From contig OX422197.1 of the NCBI GenBank assembly GCA_949130485.1, positions 1,836,603 through 1,900,602 of the forward strand: a DNA stretch of 64,000 nt. The letters run 5' to 3'. The DNA comes from Agelas oroides (Eukaryota > Porifera > Demospongiae > Agelasida > Agelasidae). Positions 26,810-62,555 of this stretch are shown in pieces (the stretch's first letter is position 1; the number at the start of each line of letters is the position of its first letter). Under the pieces are notes generated by a model, which had not been told where the DNA came from, made no database searches, and was given only the letters and a program-made list of their open reading frames with translations. The translations under genes were made by a program, and so were the position numbers.

Positions 26810-27055
26810 TTATTGCGGTGTATAGTAATCAAACTTAAAACCAGGCAAGTTTAATCCTATATATACTTAATAGCTTGCAATTCCTGCAGGATTATCTTGA
26901 GAATGTGTATCATAATTAAGTTGGATCATAGCCAAGTTGTAGGGATATTCATGTATGGTATACTGTCAGGGAATGGTATCGAAGTGAATTCATATGAGTC
27001 TTACTAGCAACATGTACACACAGACACGCCCTACCAGATTGCAACGCTTGTTGTA

Positions 27056-28843
27056 ATGGGGATCCAAGGACTTCTCAAATTGATTGATGACAACTTGCAT
27101 GCCTGCTGTGTGCGGCAGCAACTGTCGGGTGCTGGTACAAGGATCGTAGTGGACGGAAGCAACGTTCTACACGAACTCTACAGGCAACACAAACTAGACT
27201 GGGCCAATGGGGGGGAGTATTCTGAGCAGCGAAGGGTCACCGTGGACCTTTTTAACGCGCTGCAGGAAAAGGGCGCTAGGGCAATCGTCGTTATGGACGG
27301 AGGTGGTGTCGACAGCAATTTCTCTGACGTGGCCTACAGGAGGAATCGTTCCATAGTTACCGTTCCGCAGTCCCTTCGCGAAGAGCATCAAAACTATCGT
27401 CGAAGTTCACGGCATATTCTTCCTACACTTTCGCGAATCCTTTTCGCAGAGACCGTCGAAGAGCTAGATATACCACTGTACGTTGCTGATGGGAAGGCAA
27501 TCGCCACTGCCGTTCGGTTAGCCAACCATTACAACTGCCCTGTTCTTGGGAACGACACCAACTACTGCATTTGTAACCTGCGCGCAGGATTCATCCACTA
27601 TCAATACGTTGAGTTACGAGATACGCACGTACTAAGCGTATTTCACCGCCGCAATTTCGCACAACATTTCGGACTTCGAGATCCTGATTTGTGTTTAGCT
27701 ATTACTGCTATTCTCGGAGATGGCGGTGACATGTCCGTTCCTTATTTGTATCATGGCGCAATCAAACGATTCCTAGAACCCCAAGCCAATGAGGGTGAGT
27801 ACAGGTTAATGACAGTCATCAGGTACTTGAGCGGCTTTCGGTCCTTCCAACAATTCAAGGACAACATTCGCACAATGCCCTTTGGCCGAAAACCAAAAGA
27901 GGCTTTGCAGGGAAATTGCCAGAAGGTGGAGATCTTGTATTCAATACCGACTACCATGAGTTGTGAGGACTTGAGAGAATCAACCGAGATCAAATGCCTG
28001 GCTGGATGTGACCTACCAAAGTTTCTTCTCCAGCGATACAGGAAAGGGCACATGGATAACAGTGCAGTTGACGTACCTGCGCTGGGTAGTTGCTTGCTGA
28101 GTTATCTAGTTGGAGACCCAAAGCTACCTCCAGTGGTTGAAATTGGACGACCCATCCGCCAGTTCTTCTATGGCTTACTATCCCCCCTCATGGGTGGAGA
28201 TAGGAAAGTGGTTGAGTTTCATCGCAACAAAGAAGCGGGAGATGAGAAAGAACTCAAATATGAAGGCCACAGAGTTACTCCTATTTGCAGTGACCAGTTT
28301 CAGGAAATCTCAGCAGCAAATATAGAGATGGTTACTAAGGATGAGAGAGAGCCACTTGCAAAAGATGCCATCTGCTCTGCACTTCATTGTCCTTTGGCAG
28401 TCATTGCAGAGTTTGACAACTGGGAAGAGAGTGGCTGGATGTTGGTGGTTGCAGCTACAAGGTACTGGGCAACAAACCACCTTGTTCGTTCACTTGTACC
28501 AAACCATCCACAACTGGTAAAGTCGCTTGTCTTCAGTTTTGTCAGCTGTGCAAGTCGACACCCCAGCTCTCTTGTCGAAGATGCCTATGAGAAACCACAC
28601 TGGCTGAGGGCATATCATGCATACCTCCAGTGGCAGCTGGTCTACTTTGATTTATTGAACATGAATCAACTCCTGATGGAGCCATTTGAGTCAATGTCAC
28701 CATCCCTGCTTTTCAATGGTCCTTTGTCTCTTTATTATGCAACGCATGAGAGCCCAGATCTTCTTGATACAATGATATATAAGATGAACCATGAAAACAG
28801 GGAACTCTTTAAAAAACTGTTCGCTGCCATCTTGCCACAGTAA
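27056..28843 (+). CDS. Asteroid homologue (FEN1/XPG-like nuclease family)
   Basis: A single uninterrupted reading frame of 595 codons. Seen: N-terminal MGIQGLL, IVVDGSN with Asp33, VVMDGGG with Asp81, then LANHYNCPVLGNDTNYCI, matching the human ASTE1 block LANHWNCPVLSSDSDFCI, and IRQFFYGLL in the second half (ASTE1: IRQIIYGLL). It is shorter than human ASTE1 (about 680 residues); the basic C-terminal tail is absent. The FEN-type acidic positions look partly degraded (SDSD becomes NDTN; the Glu of the SEAD motif is replaced), so nuclease activity is doubtful; inferred from alignment by eye. Drosophila asteroid is linked to EGF-receptor signalling (literature knowledge). Its 3' half was duplicated to 50744-51590. 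It begins 247 bp after CTL-B, same strand. ATG chosen because MGIxGL is the invariant family start. Confidence 0.9.
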   Translation: MGIQGLLKLIDDNLHACCVRQQLSGAGTRIVVDGSNVLHELYRQHKLDWANGGEYSEQRRVTVDLFNALQEKGARAIVVMDGGGVDSNFSDVAYRRNRSIVTVPQSLREEHQNYRRSSRHILPTLSRILFAETVEELDIPLYVADGKAIATAVRLANHYNCPVLGNDTNYCICNLRAGFIHYQYVELRDTHVLSVFHRRNFAQHFGLRDPDLCLAITAILGDGGDMSVPYLYHGAIKRFLEPQANEGEYRLMTVIRYLSGFRSFQQFKDNIRTMPFGRKPKEALQGNCQKVEILYSIPTTMSCEDLRESTEIKCLAGCDLPKFLLQRYRKGHMDNSAVDVPALGSCLLSYLVGDPKLPPVVEIGRPIRQFFYGLLSPLMGGDRKVVEFHRNKEAGDEKELKYEGHRVTPICSDQFQEISAANIEMVTKDEREPLAKDAICSALHCPLAVIAEFDNWEESGWMLVVAATRYWATNHLVRSLVPNHPQLVKSLVFSFVSCASRHPSSLVEDAYEKPHWLRAYHAYLQWQLVYFDLLNMNQLLMEPFESMSPSLLFNGPLSLYYATHESPDLLDTMIYKMNHENRELFKKLFAAILPQ

Positions 28844-32668: not shown

Positions 32669-32918
32669 ATACTTACTGCCAATGGCCAATAATCGAACTC
32701 GCAAAGAACGTCTCTCCCAAGAACAAAATCGCCGCTAGCCACGTGGTCCAGATTCATACGCATGCGCGTTTTCCGCGGAGTAAAAAATGGCCGACTTATC
32801 ATGTAGCCGTAGGGCAGAGGAGGAAGGGCTCTGGCCCGAGCCATCCTGGGGTACCTTTTCAAAACTCTAATCCTATTGGTCAATAATTATACGCATATGC
32901 GCCGTTGCCCTGACAACA

Positions 32919-32961
32919 CCCTAAATTAACCCTAACCCAACCCTAATAAACCCTAACCCAA
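32919..32961. repeat. Short degenerate telomere-like tract
   Basis: Repeated CCCTAA/CCCTAACCC units (about six, with irregular spacers) in a 43-bp stretch. The metazoan telomere repeat is TTAGGG, so this is an interstitial telomere-like patch or a chance low-complexity tract. Confidence 0.6.
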
Positions 32962-33005
32962 CCAATCAGATTAGAGCTTTGAAACGCACTCCGGTACTGT
33001 AGTCT

Positions 33006-36259: not shown

Positions 36260-36730
36260 CTGACATGATTCAGGTGGAATATATACGGCACCGGAAACGG
36301 AACCGGAAATCCTGTTCACCTGGACTGCCACGTATGCTACCTGTGCGCTAACTAATCCGAATTTCTGGTGCCGTGTATTCCAATTGTAGGGTTCGCAACT
36401 TGGAATACGAAAGCACTGCAATGAACGATTTCATGCGCTCGGTGAAACACTGTATTCAAGTCCTAATCGTGGGTGCACATTGCGTTGACTGGAGCCGTAA
36501 GTTTTCCGACAGTGACGTAATGAAAAATTTTCGTTTCCGGTCAAATTTTAGTCACGAAACATTTCAATAGCCTCGTTCCCAGGCCTTCGCTAGACATGCG
36601 CACATTATGCCGGCATAATTTAAAGCACAATAGGCAGCTATTAGCATAAGCACAATTTCGAGCATAATAGGTAAGCGCAACGCGCGCTTACATAATTTTT
36701 TAACCTTTGAACCGAATGCCACGTGTAAAG

Positions 36731-38163
36731 TAGCGATGTCGGGGTGAAAATCAAAATTCGTTTATCACAACAACAACCTTTATTTTTGAAAAGAGCATAA
36801 TATGGCGATTCCAACGGTACCCATATCAATGGGATTGGGTGAATACAGCAAGCGGTACGGTCTTCGAAATGTAACTGGTTTACCAAATTTTTTCTACGTC
36901 ATTTTAGCGCAATATTCCGGTCACTACCTTTCCGGAAGCCGCTGTAAGCCCGATCAGAATGAAACTCGCTGTGAAAGATAGTCTGTACCTATTCAGTCCA
37001 ATGAAGGTTGTGGATTTTAGATATCTAGTATAATCCTTGCACTAGGCTTGATAAATGCTTAAAAAACGGCATTTTGTGGCCATAAATAGTTGCATTTCCG
37101 GGGAAGTTGGAGTAAGATTCCAATCAAAAACCTGTACCATCCCATTGGGCAACTACTCTAGTATACAGAACTGGTTGTGCTTTGTTGAATATTAAAGTAG
37201 CTGTGAGTAGCGATGTCGGGGTGAAAATCAAAATTCGTTTATCACAACAACAACCTTTATTTTTGAAAAGAGCATAATATGGCGATTCCAACGGTACCCA
37301 TATCAATGGGATTGGGTGAATACAGCAAGCGGTACGGTCTTCGAAATGTAACTGGTTTACCAAATTTTTTCTACGTCATTTTAGCGCAATATTCCGGTCA
37401 CTACCTTTCCGGAAGCCGCTGTAAGCCCGATCAGAATGAAACTCGCTGTGAAAGATAGTCTGTACCTATTCAGTCCAATGAAGGTTGTGGATTTTAGATA
37501 TCTAGTATAATCCTTGTACTAGGCTTGATAAATGCTTAAAAAACGGCATTTTGTGGCCATAAATAGTTGCATTTCCGGGGAAGTTGGAGTAAGATTCCAA
37601 TCAAAAACCTGTACCATCCCATTGGGCAACTACTCTAGTATACAGAACTGGTTGTGCTTTGTTGAATATTAAAGTAGCTGTGAGCAGCATTACAAAATGT
37701 CTTAATACTTCAACAATTTGCAGAAAAGTAGCGAGATGTGCCAAAAAATTGTGTGCAGTTCTGATCGAGGCGGATATTTTTAACAAAGCTGTGCAAGGAA
37801 ATATACCAAAGCCTCTAAGGAACCTCTATACTAAATTTGATGTGAATACATTAAGACTTTGTGGAGAAATGGCCTGGGTAGAAGAGCATTTGCATACTAT
37901 TGGAAACTCTGACATCGCTACTGTGAGCAGCATTACAAAATGTCTTAATACTTCAACAATTTGCAGAAAAGTAGCGAGATGTGCCAAAAAATTGTGTGCA
38001 GTTCTGATCGAGGCGGATATTTTTAACAAAGCTGTGCAAGGAAATATACCCAAGCCTCTAAGGAACCTCTATACTAAATTTGATGTGAATACATTAAGAC
38101 TTTGTGGAGAAATGGCCTGGGTAGAAGAGCATTTGCATACTATTGGAAACTCTGACATCGCTA
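36731..38163 (+). mobile_element. 713-bp TAGCGATGTC element (outer copy), third level
   Basis: TIR TAGCGATGTC at 36731-36740 and GACATCGCTA at 38154-38163; 7-bp duplication TGTAAAG at 36724-36730 and 38164-38170. The empty site (ACGTGTAAAGTAACTG) is read on the minus strand in the solo hAT-like MITE near 32520-32540. Its total of 1433 bp equals two 713-bp copies plus one 7-bp duplication, since a second copy lies inside. A 7-bp duplication is unusual among DNA transposon superfamilies. Confidence 0.9.
37208..37920 (+). mobile_element. 713-bp TAGCGATGTC element (inner copy), fourth level
   Basis: Complete copy inserted into its own family member, in the same orientation. TIRs at 37208-37217 and 37911-37920; 7-bp duplication CTGTGAG at 37201-37207 and 37921-37927. 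The same CTGTGAG is present uninterrupted inside the inner copy at 37678-37684, giving the unoccupied site. The two copies differ by only a couple of bases (e.g. position 37039 versus 37516), so the insertion is very recent. Confidence 0.92.
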
Positions 38164-38166
38164 TGT
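37592..38166 (+). other. Unidentified reading frame in the 713-bp element (duplicated by nesting)
   Basis: Open from the TAA at 37589 across the inner copy's right half and on into the outer copy's right half, so an 81-codon block (SSITKCLNTSTICRKVARCA ... HTIGNSDIA) appears twice in tandem. It runs through the TIR and stops only in the flanking duplication (TAA of TGTAAAG), which argues against a finished gene. I recognise no domain. It may be the decayed C-terminal part of a transposase, captured host sequence, or chance. Confidence 0.4.
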
Positions 38167-38608
38167 AAAGTAACTGTAGTATACGTATATACCGCTCACG
38201 CTAGGTACTACTAGCACGAGGATCGCAACGTCTGACTCTTGCAACAGCTCATATCAGAGCTCGGGTAGTATGCCTAAGGAGACGGAGTCCACATCTCATT
38301 GCTGGACCGACTCAAGGCCCCTACGCGATCAGAACTGTCACGTAACGCTGTGTACACATTGGGCATAATGGGGAACATAACTGAGCATAATTGGTAAAAT
38401 TGTCAGGAATAAAGGAATAGCATAATAGGGTAGCAATGAAGCATAATGTGCGGGAGCCTAGCCTTCGCGCGTTAATTCGCTCAGAAGGCCTGGCCATTTC
38501 ATCACGTGATGTGTGCCGCAGCTTACGTCACGACCATTCTACTGGAATCAATGATGTCATATGATGTAACCATTGACCAATCAAATTGAAGTTTTGAAAT
38601 CCACTGCT

Positions 38609-40510: not shown

Positions 40511-49937
<9,427 letters not shown>

Positions 49938-50653: not shown

Positions 50654-50743
50654 TGTGAATACATGAATTAGAAATCAGACATCAGTCACGCTTCATCAAA
50701 ACATGTTTGTCTGTTTGTTTTTCTTTTGTATAAAATAATAAAA

Positions 50744-51590
50744 ATGCCTGGCTGGATGTGACCTACCAAACTTCTCCAGCAATACATGCAGGAAAAGGCA
50801 CATGGATAACAGTACAGTTGACGTACCTGCGCCTGGTAGTTGCTTGCTGAGTTATCTAGTTGGAGACCCAAAGTTACCTCCAGTGGTTGAAATTGGACGA
50901 CCCATCTGCCAGTTCTTCTATGGCTTACTATCCCCCCTCATGGGTGGAGATAGGAAAGTGGTTGAGTTTCATCACAACAAAGAAGTGGGAGATGAGAGAG
51001 AACTCAAATATGAAGGCCACAGAGTTACTCCTATTTGCAGTGACCAGTTTCAGGAAATCTCAGCAGCAAATATAGAGATGGTTACTAAGGATGAGAGAAA
51101 GCTACTTGCAAAACTCGGATGCCATCTGCTCTGCACTTCATTGTCCTTTGGCAGTCATTGCAGAGTTTGACAACTGGGAAGAGAGTGGCTGGATGTTGGT
51201 GGTTGCAGCTACAAGGTACTGGGCAACAAACCACCTTGTTCGTTCACTTGTACCAAACCATCCACAACTGGTAAAGTCGCTTGTCTTCAGTTTTGTCAGC
51301 TGTGCAAGTCGACACCCCAGCTCTCTTGTCGAAGATGCCTATGAGAAACCACACTGGCTGAGGGCATATCATGCATACCTCCAGTGGCAGCTGGTCTACT
51401 TTGATTTATTGAACATGAATCAACTCCTGATGGAGCCATTTGAGTCAATGTCACCATCCCTGCTTTTCAATGGTCCTTTGTCTCTTCACTATGCAACGCA
51501 TGAGAGCCCAGATGATCTTGATACAATGATATATAAGATGAACCATGAAAACAGGTCGCTGCCATCTTGCCACAGTAATAGTTGAAAATC
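50744..51590 (+). pseudogene. Partial, frameshifted copy of Asteroid (3' half)
   Basis: Closely follows Asteroid from about 27993 to the stop (over 95% by eye) but starts mid-gene. It has small indels near 50770-50795, a 4-bp insertion at about 51115 after GCAAAA, and a ~19-bp deletion near 51556 in the last codons. No start, so not a working nuclease. About 200 bp of downstream sequence also correspond (to 51797). It lies between SRCR1 and SRCR2, which shows an Asteroid-3'/SRCR block was duplicated together. Confidence 0.9.
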
Positions 51591-58100: not shown

Positions 58101-59259
58101 ACCACAGTAATATTAAAATAGGTAACTAGGATGTTTGATCCAGCATAGACATAGCAAAAAAAATAGTACTAATACCCATCATTAGGCCTTCCTTAGCTAC
58201 TATAGCACAACCTAGAAGCGGAAATAAGGTTTTGCGAAAATTTGAAAGACCTATAAATAGGACTTGTAACACTGAGTTCAGGGAGGGTCATTAAGTAATG
58301 GGTGCCAGAGTTGAAGCCAAAGTCTAAATCCATAACTAGCGATGACACGTATTGATGACTGAACAAACCAACCAGAAACTCATTACCAAAGTACGGTACA
58401 GGAGTTTACCCTCTTGAAACTGAAACAACAAATACACATCCTCCAATTGATTGACAAATCAGCAACAGTCTTCATAGAAATGAGCAACAGTGTTCTGTAT
58501 TCACATAGAAATGATAATTGGATTGTGCATGCATTATGTAACCCTAAACCAAGGATGCAGATATGCCAACTTGCAGCCCAGACTCAAGAAACAATATATT
58601 GATGAAAGGCCTAATTTAGTCTTTCTCACACAAAGTTTTTGATCAGCATAGCTTACCAGATATTAAGCTACTTTGCATAATGAACAACATTGCATTCTAC
58701 GCATGCTCTGAATAAGTATTTCTCTCTAGGTGTAGACACAGTTGCAATTGCTGTGGGAGTGTCAGTCGCATCTTTGGTGCTGTTTGTGATCATCCCAACC
58801 ATCTGTATTGTCATTGCCTGCATCATGCATAGAAGAAGAACAACCACACAACCTGCTGCTCGTGCCACTAGTGTCACACCACGTTTTCAGCAAGAGAATG
58901 ACCAGCAACATAACGCCCAGTGGCAGAATGGCCAGCAACCAAGTGCACAGCAGTTTGACTTCCAGGCCTACCCAGCTGCTGCAACTGACCTCAAGCAGGC
59001 TCCACCTCCTGCATATGAGATGCACACTGCATACCCTGCCCCATCTCAACAACAATCTAAACAGGCTCCACCTCCTCAATATGAGATACAGGCCACACCT
59101 TCTCCCTCATCCCTCACAACCAGCTCCCAGCAACAGTCTGAACAGCCTCAACCTCCTCCATACGAGATGCCCCCTTCCCATCCCATGCAAGCTACACAGT
59201 CTCCACCACTCCAGGCTGACTACCCTCCCCAGCCTCAGGTTGCCTTAGAGACAACCTAG
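52109..59259 (+). CDS. SRCR2: transmembrane receptor with three group-A SRCR domains
   Basis: Exons 52109-52157 (signal peptide [17 protein letters not shown]), 54732-54933/56136-56275, 56402-56603/56947-57095, 57490-57691/57944-58095, and 58730-59259. Sum 1626 nt, 541 aa, all phases consistent. Same architecture as SRCR1 with half as many domains. Domain 1 deviates (TVCQDSW, RHLGF) and its second exon ends at a weak donor (AATG, GTACTA) chosen because it restores the phase. The first intron (2.6 kb) holds a Mutator-like MITE, and the intron splitting domain 1 holds rolling-circle-like fragment B. The membrane span and tail are nearly identical to SRCR1; tail motifs are PPAY, PPQY and PPPY. 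Presumed cell-surface recognition receptor signalling or turning over through WW-domain partners (inferred). Confidence 0.88.
52637..53201. mobile_element. 565-bp Mutator-like MITE in SRCR2 intron 1
   Basis: Ends TAGCCTCGTCCCCGGCG / CGCCGGGTACCAGGCTA, with identical 9-bp duplication AACAGCTCA at 52628-52636 and 53202-53210. No transposase. Confidence 0.88.
54221..54345 (-). repeat. Segment inverted relative to SRCR1 intron 1
   Basis: The complement of this stretch (…GAGTGCTGTTATTCGGTAAT … CTTTCAAACCGCCCAGTGGC) matches 40931-41040 of SRCR1 intron 1, while sequence to the right (GATAACCCATGTATCCGGTG) is in the same orientation in both genes. A local inversion of roughly 110 bp. Confidence 0.7.
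55110..55890 (-). mobile_element. Rolling-circle-like element fragment B, in the domain-1 intron of SRCR2
   Basis: Shares with 30998-32805 the AATGAAAGGCACTGAAGTGCC terminal hairpin, the zinc-ribbon ORF and the CGCATGCGCGTTTTCCGCGG block, but lacks both nested elements and so shows the hAT-like empty site. Ends are approximate. Confidence 0.5.
55367..55758 (-). pseudogene. Zinc-ribbon, Arg/Glu-rich transposon ORF fragment (copy B)
   Basis: ATG at 55758: [18 protein letters not shown] then [14 protein letters not shown], with an intact CX2C...CX2C ribbon. A one-base loss near 55637 relative to copy A shifts the frame before [20 protein letters not shown]; the end has two ~65-bp tandem units encoding [19 protein letters not shown]. 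Non-functional fragment of a transposon protein. Confidence 0.55.
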
Positions 59260-61378: not shown

Positions 61379-62465
61379 TTTTTTTTTTTTTTTTTTTTTC
61401 TATGAAATTTATGCATAAAAGCAAAGGATGCATGAAATAGCGTACAGCTAATGCTAGCATACATCCTAAATACAATGATACAATTGTAGGGAGTGTTTAA
61501 ATGTGACTAAGGAGTTAGAGTGTACTACAGAATCAGGTAAATTGTTCCACAAAGAAATTGTATGGGGGAAAAAAGAATACATATATTGATTGGTACGAGC
61601 AGTTGGACAAACAAAAGAGAGATCATGTATGTGTCTAGATTGAAAAGGTGGTACTCTGTGAATAAGATTAGCAATAGGAGCAATAGATAATCCATTCATA
61701 TAGCTGATGAAGGTACACAATTTTAGTTGTTTTCTACGTGTAGCCAAAGTAGGAATGCTGAGGGTCCTGAGCATAGTTGGATAGCTTAAATCCCACTGCT
61801 TCAAGCACACTCTACAAGCAAATTTTTGAATGTTTTCAAGAGTTTGTTGGTCCTTCAGTAGATGTGGATCCCAAACCTGGCTTGCATATTCCAAGTGAGG
61901 CCTTACGATAGCAATGTAGAGCTTACGAATGATGTCTGTATCTGCACATCTATAGAACTGCCGGAACAGCAGTCCAACAAGCTTTCGGGCTTTGGAGCTG
62001 ATGATGTTTATATGTTTAGTCCAGGATAAGTCAGAAGAGATGGTAATGCCCAGGTACTTAACACTGTCAACAATTTCCAATCTAGGACCCATTTAGTGAA
62101 AAGTAGGAAGGGGCTTGAACAGGATGTCTCTTTCTTGAAAATACCATGGCTTTGGATTTCGAAGGATTAAATGTCAGATAGTTATTGTTAGCCCATTTTC
62201 CAAGTGCTTCAACATCCTGCTGCAAAAGTTGATAGTCAGATGCTTGCCTAATAGGCCTGTACAACAGAATATCATCAGCATACATAACCAGTTTGCTCTC
62301 AGGTGATAATGGTAGCTCAGCAATTCCATTGATGTAAATGAGGAAAAGAAGGGGCCCCAGGACAGACCCCTGGGGCACACCAGAAATGACAGAGAGGGGC
62401 TTTGAAGATACGCCATTCACTACAACATACTGAGTACGGTTTGTGAGGTAGTCAGTAATAGGTAG
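61379..62465 (-). mobile_element. 5'-truncated LINE retrotransposon fragment
   Basis: Minus strand. The frame 62465-62082 has the reverse transcriptase signatures GVPQGSVLGPLLFLIYING and YADD (catalytic Asp pair), then TFNPSKSKAMVFS. After a frameshift near 62085 the frame 62092-61466 carries VKYLGITISSDLSW and a typical jockey/CR1-like C-terminal region (RPHLEYASQVWDPH). A 21-base A tail (61379-61399 as T) follows 66 bases of 3' sequence. The endonuclease and first part of the RT are missing; the 5' limit near 62465 is approximate. Dead copy. Confidence 0.85.
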
Positions 62466-62555
62466 ACATCCAGGCCAATAGCTATGCTACTATTGTGTAC
62501 ATAACTGCAAGGGACTGGCATAACATGTACACAACAAACATAATGTTGTCCACAG

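What the first reader, a model, noticed from the sequence alone, without database searches (positions are those of the whole stretch)
36724..38170. A 713-bp DNA transposon inserted into a copy of itself, with both 7-bp target duplications intact
Segments read A-CTGTGAG-A-CTGTGAG-B-CTGTGAG-B. This is explained exactly by one 713-bp element (TIR TAGCGATGTC...GACATCGCTA) sitting in a second 713-bp copy at CTGTGAG. The outer copy is flanked by TGTAAAG twice. Arithmetic closes: 713+713+7 = 1433 = 36731..38163. Two independent events thus give the same 7-bp TSD. Most superfamilies make 2, 3, 4, 5, 8 or 9 bp; 6-7 bp is reported for Dada-like elements, so this may be an undescribed family. The near-identity of the copies suggests recent activity.
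Basis: seen in the sequence. Interest (0 to 1): 0.85.

Follow-up and report, generated by a model that had tools for sequence, protein, structure and literature searches.

The report
Self-nested short DNA transposon, 7-bp duplications
A short, gene-less jumping DNA element has landed inside a copy of itself, and it and two related element families in the same genome make an uncommon but already documented 7-base target duplication.

Summary
At 36731-38163 a 713-bp element (37208-37920) sits inside a second 713-bp copy, with both 7-bp target duplications intact (CTGTGAG inner, TGTAAAG outer). The copies differ at 2 of 713 bases; the uninterrupted copy has one CTGTGAG and so shows the pre-insertion site.

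Of 36 distinct contiguous full-length copies in hand (mostly best-scoring ones), 35 have an exact 7-bp duplication and none matches at 5, 6, 8, 9 or 10. The target consensus is about CTNNNAG. A sister 714-bp family (one copy checked) and a ~1970-bp family (9 of 10 sampled) also make 7-bp duplications.

Inferring novelty from TSD length is only partly right: 7-bp duplications are in print for Galileo (P superfamily), fungal hAT7 and Kyakuja. Dada lacks TIRs and targets small-RNA genes.

Best reading: a young non-autonomous family mobilised in trans by an unidentified transposase, hAT7-like more likely than P-like or new. One self-nest is about what chance predicts.

The parts
36724..36730 (+). 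TGTAAAG, left target-site duplication of the outer copy
   Evidence: sequence; identical to 38164-38170
36731..37207 (+). outer copy, left 477 bases (470 bp A plus the first CTGTGAG)
   Evidence: direct repeat D1 with the inner copy
36731..36745 (+). left terminal inverted repeat of the outer copy, TAGCGATGTCGGGGT
   Evidence: pair I4, 15 nt, 87% complementary
37201..37207 (+). CTGTGAG, left target-site duplication of the inner copy
   Evidence: sequence
37208..37920 (+). inner 713-bp copy, complete; itself shows the pre-insertion site (single CTGTGAG at 37678-37684)
37921..37927 (+). CTGTGAG, right target-site duplication of the inner copy
   Evidence: sequence
37928..38163 (+). outer copy, right 236 bases
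   Evidence: direct repeat D2
38149..38163 (-). right terminal inverted repeat of the outer copy (reads TAGCGATGTCAGAGT on the minus strand)
   Evidence: pair I4
38164..38170 (+). TGTAAAG, right target-site duplication of the outer copy
   Evidence: sequence

Best explanation
The feature is a non-autonomous cut-and-paste DNA transposon (MITE-like, 713 bp, 15-bp imperfect TIRs) that inserted into another copy of the same family. SHOWN: insertions carry 7-bp direct repeats at targets with consensus CTNNNAG; the family has many copies, some very young; a third family in this genome shares TAG at TIR positions 1-3 and GAT at 5-7, the 7-bp duplication and similar-looking targets, and a sister family shares the ends. 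INFERRED: a transposase encoded elsewhere binds the TIRs, excises the element and makes target cuts staggered by 7 bp, and repair leaves the 7-bp repeats. INFERRED, weaker: the transposase belongs to the hAT superfamily (a hAT7-like lineage, about 0.45), ahead of P (about 0.2) and of an undescribed lineage (about 0.22). The confidence below is for the statement without the superfamily guess.
For: Nest and both TSDs. TSD: 35 of 36 distinct contiguous copies exact at 7 bp, 0 matching at 5, 6, 8, 9 or 10. Target motif: (33 sites; chi-square over 11.3 at TSD positions 1, 2, 6 and 7, and also at one flank position, -13). Copy number: 378 TIR matches against 6 control; 40 candidates scored of 376; 150 right-end matches scored of 354 candidates. 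Young subfamilies. Sister family: 40 scored of 353 candidates, 93-100% to the query. Third family: 40 of 155 candidates scored; 9 of 10 sampled copies with exact 7-bp TSD, plus one nested in a sister-family copy at CTGAAGA. hAT guess: the TAG[C/T]G start fits the hAT end consensus (recalled, from no call); T at TSD position 2 and A at the next-to-last position resemble the hAT target pattern (recalled); a 7-bp hAT group is in print (PMC12730594, passages).
Against: No autonomous copy or transposase was tied to these TIRs. The open frame at the right end has no Pfam match and no codon-phase bias between the window family and its sister. Of nine long third-family TIR pairs none holds a hAT dimerisation hit (150 of 249 candidates scored) or a hAT RNase-H hit (16 of 16). 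The 280 bp past the hAT domain in six chosen hAT families show no such TIR, though 280 bp may fall short of the end. One contiguous copy (L014) has no TSD, and one interrupted copy with a mutated right end (L072, 2549-4050) has no exact 7-bp repeat; its flanks agree at 8 of 9 as 9-mers. The palindrome holds for the consensus only: in single sites, complementary pairs are fewer than the columns predict (TSD positions 1/7: 9 against 13.5; 2/6: 9 against 13.4; 3/5: 5 against 9.3).
Confidence: 0.88

Rival explanations
1. The families are mobilised by a P-superfamily (Galileo-like) transposase, which also leaves 7-bp target duplications with a palindromic consensus.
For: Galileo TSDs are typically 7 bp with consensus GTANTAC inside a 15-bp palindromic motif (PMC4168063, passages). 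P RNase-H domains are present in this genome: 67 matches, 66 of 66 candidates scored.
Against: None of those P hits lies inside the nine long third-family TIR pairs, nor within 8 kb of the 100 contig-1 TIR ends listed. P TIRs usually begin with CA (recalled). No preference beyond the 7 bp was seen apart from position -13.
Confidence: 0.2
2. The transposase belongs to an undescribed lineage or superfamily with 7-bp target duplications.
For: The 713-bp and ~1970-bp families share TSD length and similar targets, and the 714-bp sister family shares the ends (TSD CACGTGG in the one copy checked). hAT, P and MULE domain searches tied no known transposase to them convincingly.
Against: The searches were partial (150 of 249 hAT and 150 of 194 MULE candidates scored; TIR lists cut at 100 places), and the DNA of the long TIR pairs could not be read. 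Ends and TSD can be fitted to known superfamilies.
Confidence: 0.22
3. Dada-type transposon.
For: Dada TSDs are 6-7 bp (PMC3706591, passages).
Against: Dada has no TIRs and inserts in specific small-RNA genes. These elements have 15-bp TIRs; 33 sites show 32 different TSDs; among 20 of the fetched copies with 1.5-kb flanks Rfam finds one tRNA, about 870 bp away from its element, and none at an insertion site; none in the window.
Confidence: 0.02
4. Assembly artefact: one element duplicated in the assembly to give tandem A/A and B/B blocks.
For: The blocks are 99-100% identical and no reads were available.
Against: The duplications meet the TIRs exactly. The inner copy carries variants at 310 and 601 that are rare among 34 aligned copies (2 of 34 and 1 of 34, itself included). 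The two TSDs differ from each other. A tandem duplication would not add a complete TIR-bounded unit plus exactly 7 bp.
Confidence: 0.02
5. A MULE (Mutator-like) transposase drives the third family: a MULE domain in a 474-aa frame lies inside one of its long TIR pairs.
For: C10:5055363-5055626 lies within the pair C10:5052026-5058951, 6926 bp.
Against: Other MULE copies with nearly the same score and the same frame length (C1:21933146, C2:11977162) have no such TIR nearby, whose list covers C1 and C2 whole. 6926 minus ~1970 suits a MULE element inserted into a third-family copy. MULE TSDs are usually 9 bp (recalled).
Confidence: 0.05

Closest known systems
hAT7 (hAT superfamily, rust fungi; PMC12730594, passages)
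   Same: 7-bp TSD; DNA transposon; start TAG[C/T]G compatible with hAT ends (recalled)
   Different: hAT7 is described from fungi with a transposase and in part a TET/JBP gene; here no transposase was found, and the host is unidentified. Termini of hAT7 are in a figure that is not held, so they could not be compared.
Galileo (P superfamily, Drosophila; PMC4168063 and PMC2775673, passages)
   Same: 7-bp TSD with palindromic consensus; many transposase-less copies; nested insertions
   Different: TIRs of hundreds of bases, target consensus GTANTAC and a 15-bp palindrome; here 15-bp TIRs and CTNNNAG.
Dada (PMC3706591, passages)
   Same: TSD length 6-7 bp
   Different: Dada lacks TIRs and inserts in small-RNA genes.
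Kyakuja (KDZ, fungi; PMC12730594, passages)
   Same: 7-bp TSD
   Different: Kyakuja has CA..TG termini and no TIRs; the families described encode TET/JBP.

Membership tests
Non-autonomous TIR DNA transposon (MITE-like) | short element, TIRs, constant TSD length, many near-identical copies, no recognised transposase | tested here: met
hAT / hAT7 | hAT transposase in the autonomous copy | tested here: inconclusive
   no autonomous copy found; hAT domain hits not inside nine long TIR pairs, searches partial
hAT / hAT7 | TSD of 7 bp (hAT7) | tested here: met
   7 bp in 35 of 36
hAT (canonical) | TSD of 8 bp | tested here: not met
   0 of 36 copies match at 8 bp
hAT / hAT7 | termini of the YARNG type (recalled) | tested here: met
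   TAGCG and TAGTG starts; the consensus itself is from memory, and the hAT7 termini were not seen
P superfamily (Galileo) | P-type transposase in the autonomous copy | tested here: inconclusive
   67 P RNase-H matches in the genome, none inside the nine long TIR pairs
P superfamily (Galileo) | 7-8 bp TSD with palindromic target motif extending beyond the TSD | tested here: inconclusive
   TSD 7 bp and a palindromic consensus within it, not borne out site by site; no clear extension beyond it in 33 sites
Dada | no terminal inverted repeats | tested here: not met
   15-nt TIR pair
Dada | insertion in multicopy small-RNA genes | tested here: not met
   32 different TSDs in 33 sites; no Rfam match at the insertion site in 20 copies or in the window
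Kyakuja (KDZ) | CA..TG termini without TIRs | tested here: not met
   TAGCGATGTC termini with TIRs

The most novel reading that the evidence does not exclude
The 713-bp, 714-bp and ~1970-bp families are the visible non-autonomous part of an undescribed transposon lineage in this unidentified (probably animal) genome. It would be either a hAT7-type clade outside the rust fungi or a new superfamily, defined by TAGYGAT termini, a strict 7-bp stagger and a CTNNNAG target. Its autonomous members would be among the long TIR pairs that hold no detected hAT, P or MULE domain (e.g. the two of 4945 and 4897 bp).
Probability: 0.3. Interest if true: 0.5.

Novelty: new member of a known kind. Interest (0 to 1): 0.3.

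Why it matters
The nest is a clean natural experiment. An uninterrupted copy shows the empty target and the interrupted copy shows exactly what the insertion added, so the 7-bp stagger needs no guess about element ends. With a third family obeying the same rule, TSD length and target motif become a usable marker for finding the driving transposase. If that proved hAT-like, a 7-bp hAT would be known outside the fungi of PMC12730594; if not, a new lineage may be at hand. Taken alone, the nest is ordinary: about 0.1-1.3 self-nests are expected for an assumed 190-700 copies in 259 Mb.

Tried and rejected
The 9864-bp candidate for the autonomous element (C1:4517678-4527541, same ends, TSD GACTAAG on both sides) was rejected. 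It is a 713-bp copy interrupted near position 483 by a ~9.15-kb insertion that begins CACAGAAAA, is flanked by TA and carries a 181/176-bp tandem array. Six of its ORF translations had no Pfam match.

The 2691-bp candidate (C1:24392228-24394918) was rejected. It is a sister-family copy with a 1970-bp third-family element nested at CTGAAGA.

Single TIR ends on contig 1: 13 were read and look alike, ends of the sister 714-bp family; 8 of the 13 coincide with sister-family copies. Of three left ends without a listed partner, L090 and L091 match ordinary family sequence (L090 up to a mutated right TIR, L091 over nearly all of the 201 bp read) and L092 leads away from the family into sequence that looks like a retroelement (by eye).

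The right-end open frame as a transposase remnant: no Pfam match and no codon-phase bias.

Six hAT families, 280 bp past the domain each: no such TIR. On contig 1 one hAT hit lies 4.1 kb and one MULE hit 0.9 kb from a TIR end, in both cases outside a short copy, so neither was taken as a driver.

MULE domain inside one TIR pair: most likely a nested insertion.

Literature searches. In one search (terminal sequences as words) 9 papers held two of the three terms and the 7 listed have unrelated titles. The host species was not identified: one search gave 14 relatives without a name and one fish protein at 26% identity.

Full report
1. Observation. The block is as described. Reading: TSD TGTAAAG, 470 bp A, CTGTGAG, A, CTGTGAG, 236 bp B, CTGTGAG, B, TSD TGTAAAG. 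The inner copy (37208-37920) is complete; the outer is split after its own CTGTGAG. Lengths close (713+713+7 = 1433). Inner and outer differ at 2 of 713 positions. The terminal repeat is 15 nt with 13 matches, the first 10 exact. Because the uninterrupted copy holds CTGTGAG once, it is the pre-insertion site, and the duplication is exactly 7 bp.

2. The family in its genome. The window lies in a 259-Mb genome with 141 contigs (C15:1836603-1900602). The 713-bp unit gave 44 matches from 40 scored of 376 first-look candidates, and the right-end frame 150 matches from 150 scored of 354; both are lower bounds. The TIR pattern TAGYGATGTCRGRGT has 378 matches against 6 for the reversed control. Of 36 distinct contiguous full-length copies with both flanks in hand, 35 have an exact 7-bp duplication; the exception is L014; none matches at 5, 6, 8, 9 or 10. 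These are mostly the best-scoring copies, and copies whose ends do not align were left out. Overlapping earlier counts are 29 of 30 and 33 of 34 (after setting aside four cross-pairs of neighbouring elements). Of three interrupted copies of this family with both ends seen, the outer window copy (TGTAAAG) and the 9864-bp copy (GACTAAG) are exact, and L072 is not: its flanks CGCAAACTG and CGCAAAGTG agree at 8 of 9 but give no exact 7-bp repeat.

3. Target choice. In 33 sites (32 different TSDs) the consensus is C(18 of 33) T(21) N N N A(17) G(22). Flanks show no comparable preference except one position (-13) over the threshold. The consensus is palindromic, but site by site the complementary pairs are fewer than the columns predict (9 against 13.5, 9 against 13.4, 5 against 9.3), so the symmetry may reflect one good half per site rather than full palindromes. 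CTGTGAG fits CTNNNAG, and the 713-bp unit holds three such sites, the window average (3.1 per 713 bp). Self-insertion needs no special explanation: 0.1-1.3 self-nests are expected for an assumed 190-700 copies.

4. Age. In 34 aligned copies there is a 21-member subfamily that holds both window copies (mean pairwise divergence 1.06%; one copy identical to the majority) and a 10-member one (1.39%), with outlying groups of 2 and 1 (copies with mutated TIR ends were not in this set). The near-identity argues for recent activity. No clock for this host was available, so no date is given.

5. Relatives. A sister family of 714 bp is about 74% identical to the window family over 693 aligned bases, with 40 scored of 353 candidates. 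One sister copy (C1:24392228-24394918, TSD CACGTGG on both sides) carries a nested 1970-bp element with TIR TAGTGATTCCGGA and TSD CTGAAGA. That third family has 40 scored of 155 first-look candidates and 132 exact TIR matches against 0 control. Of 10 full-length copies that I chose and read at both ends, 9 have an exact 7-bp TSD and the tenth has none as placed (perhaps an imperfect one with three extra bases). Its TSDs look like the same taste (CTCATAG, CTAGATA, CTGTAGT, CTAGAAG, CCTTAAG among them), but I made no count of the motif. The sister family's TSD was checked in that one copy only.

6. Coding. The 713-bp unit has no Pfam match in its right-end frame, and that region shows no third-position bias when it is compared with the sister family (73 substitutions, 27/25/21 by phase). 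It is probably moved by a protein made elsewhere (inference).

7. Search for the driver. Two promising long elements proved to be copies with other elements inserted. Hits of hAT dimerisation (150 of 249 candidates scored), P RNase-H (66 of 66), MULE (150 of 194) and hAT RNase-H (16 of 16) were compared with nine long third-family TIR pairs and with the 100 listed contig-1 TIR ends of the window family (list ends at C1:27.9 Mb). One MULE hit lies in a third-family pair and is best read as nested. One hAT hit and four MULE hits lie within 8 kb of a contig-1 TIR end; the two nearest (MULE 0.9 kb, hAT 4.1 kb) lie beside short copies. Six hAT families read for 280 bp past their domain show no such TIR. 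These negatives are weak.

8. Comparison with print. The Repbase paper uses hAT with '7-bp TSD' as its example query (PMC4455052). Dada is excluded by its lack of TIRs and its small-RNA targets (PMC3706591); in 20 copies with flanks Rfam finds one tRNA, some 870 bp from its element. All papers were read as passages, not in full. By ends and TSD, hAT7-like is my first choice, but the end consensus is recalled and the hAT7 termini are in a figure not held here.

9. Verdict. True, clean and well replicated; a new non-autonomous family of a known kind. The superfamily is open. The nest itself is ordinary; the consistent 7-bp rule in related families with no known driver is the part worth following.

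Noticed in passing
L069 and L070 (C1:4517200-4528200): A ~9.15-kb insertion (starts CACAGAAAA, ends TTTTCTGTG, flanked by TA) carries a long array of 181/176-bp units. A 300-bp piece of it gives 668 matches from 30 scored of 229 first-look candidates, spread over many contigs, so it looks like a dispersed element that carries satellite arrays.
   Followed up: partly
C7:9304137-9516840 (outside the window): Six same-strand left TIRs of the third family within about 0.2 Mb, without partners in the list, as if a segment had been amplified.
   Followed up: no
C1:12102713-12107868 (outside the window): By coordinates, a copy of the window family (12105418-12106126) seems to lie inside a third-family copy (hit 12106129-12107868, right TIR at 12102713): a further nest.
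   Followed up: no
L074 (C19:4040500-4046500), 1901-2880: A 713-bp copy whose right TSD CCATACG is followed after one base by the left end of an older relative: insertion beside or into the older copy's own flank.
   Followed up: partly
27008-28843 and 50742-51585: A 611-aa open frame (with MGIQGLLKLI near its start) and a broken partial copy of it lie in the same window; 9 of 15 relatives found carry PF27698, and 14 of 15 have no name given by a source.
   Followed up: partly
49368-49937 and 58684-59259: Two near-identical open frames (hydrophobic stretch followed by a Pro/Gln-rich tail), apparently duplicated genes (by eye).
   Followed up: no
61466-62486, minus strand: Reverse-transcriptase-like frames of a non-LTR element (read by eye).
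   Followed up: no
36600-36700 and 38360-38450: The word GCATAAT recurs several times on both sides of the nest.
   Followed up: no
32918-32963: Short telomere-like stretch, ACCCTAA repeats, inside the contig.
   Followed up: no
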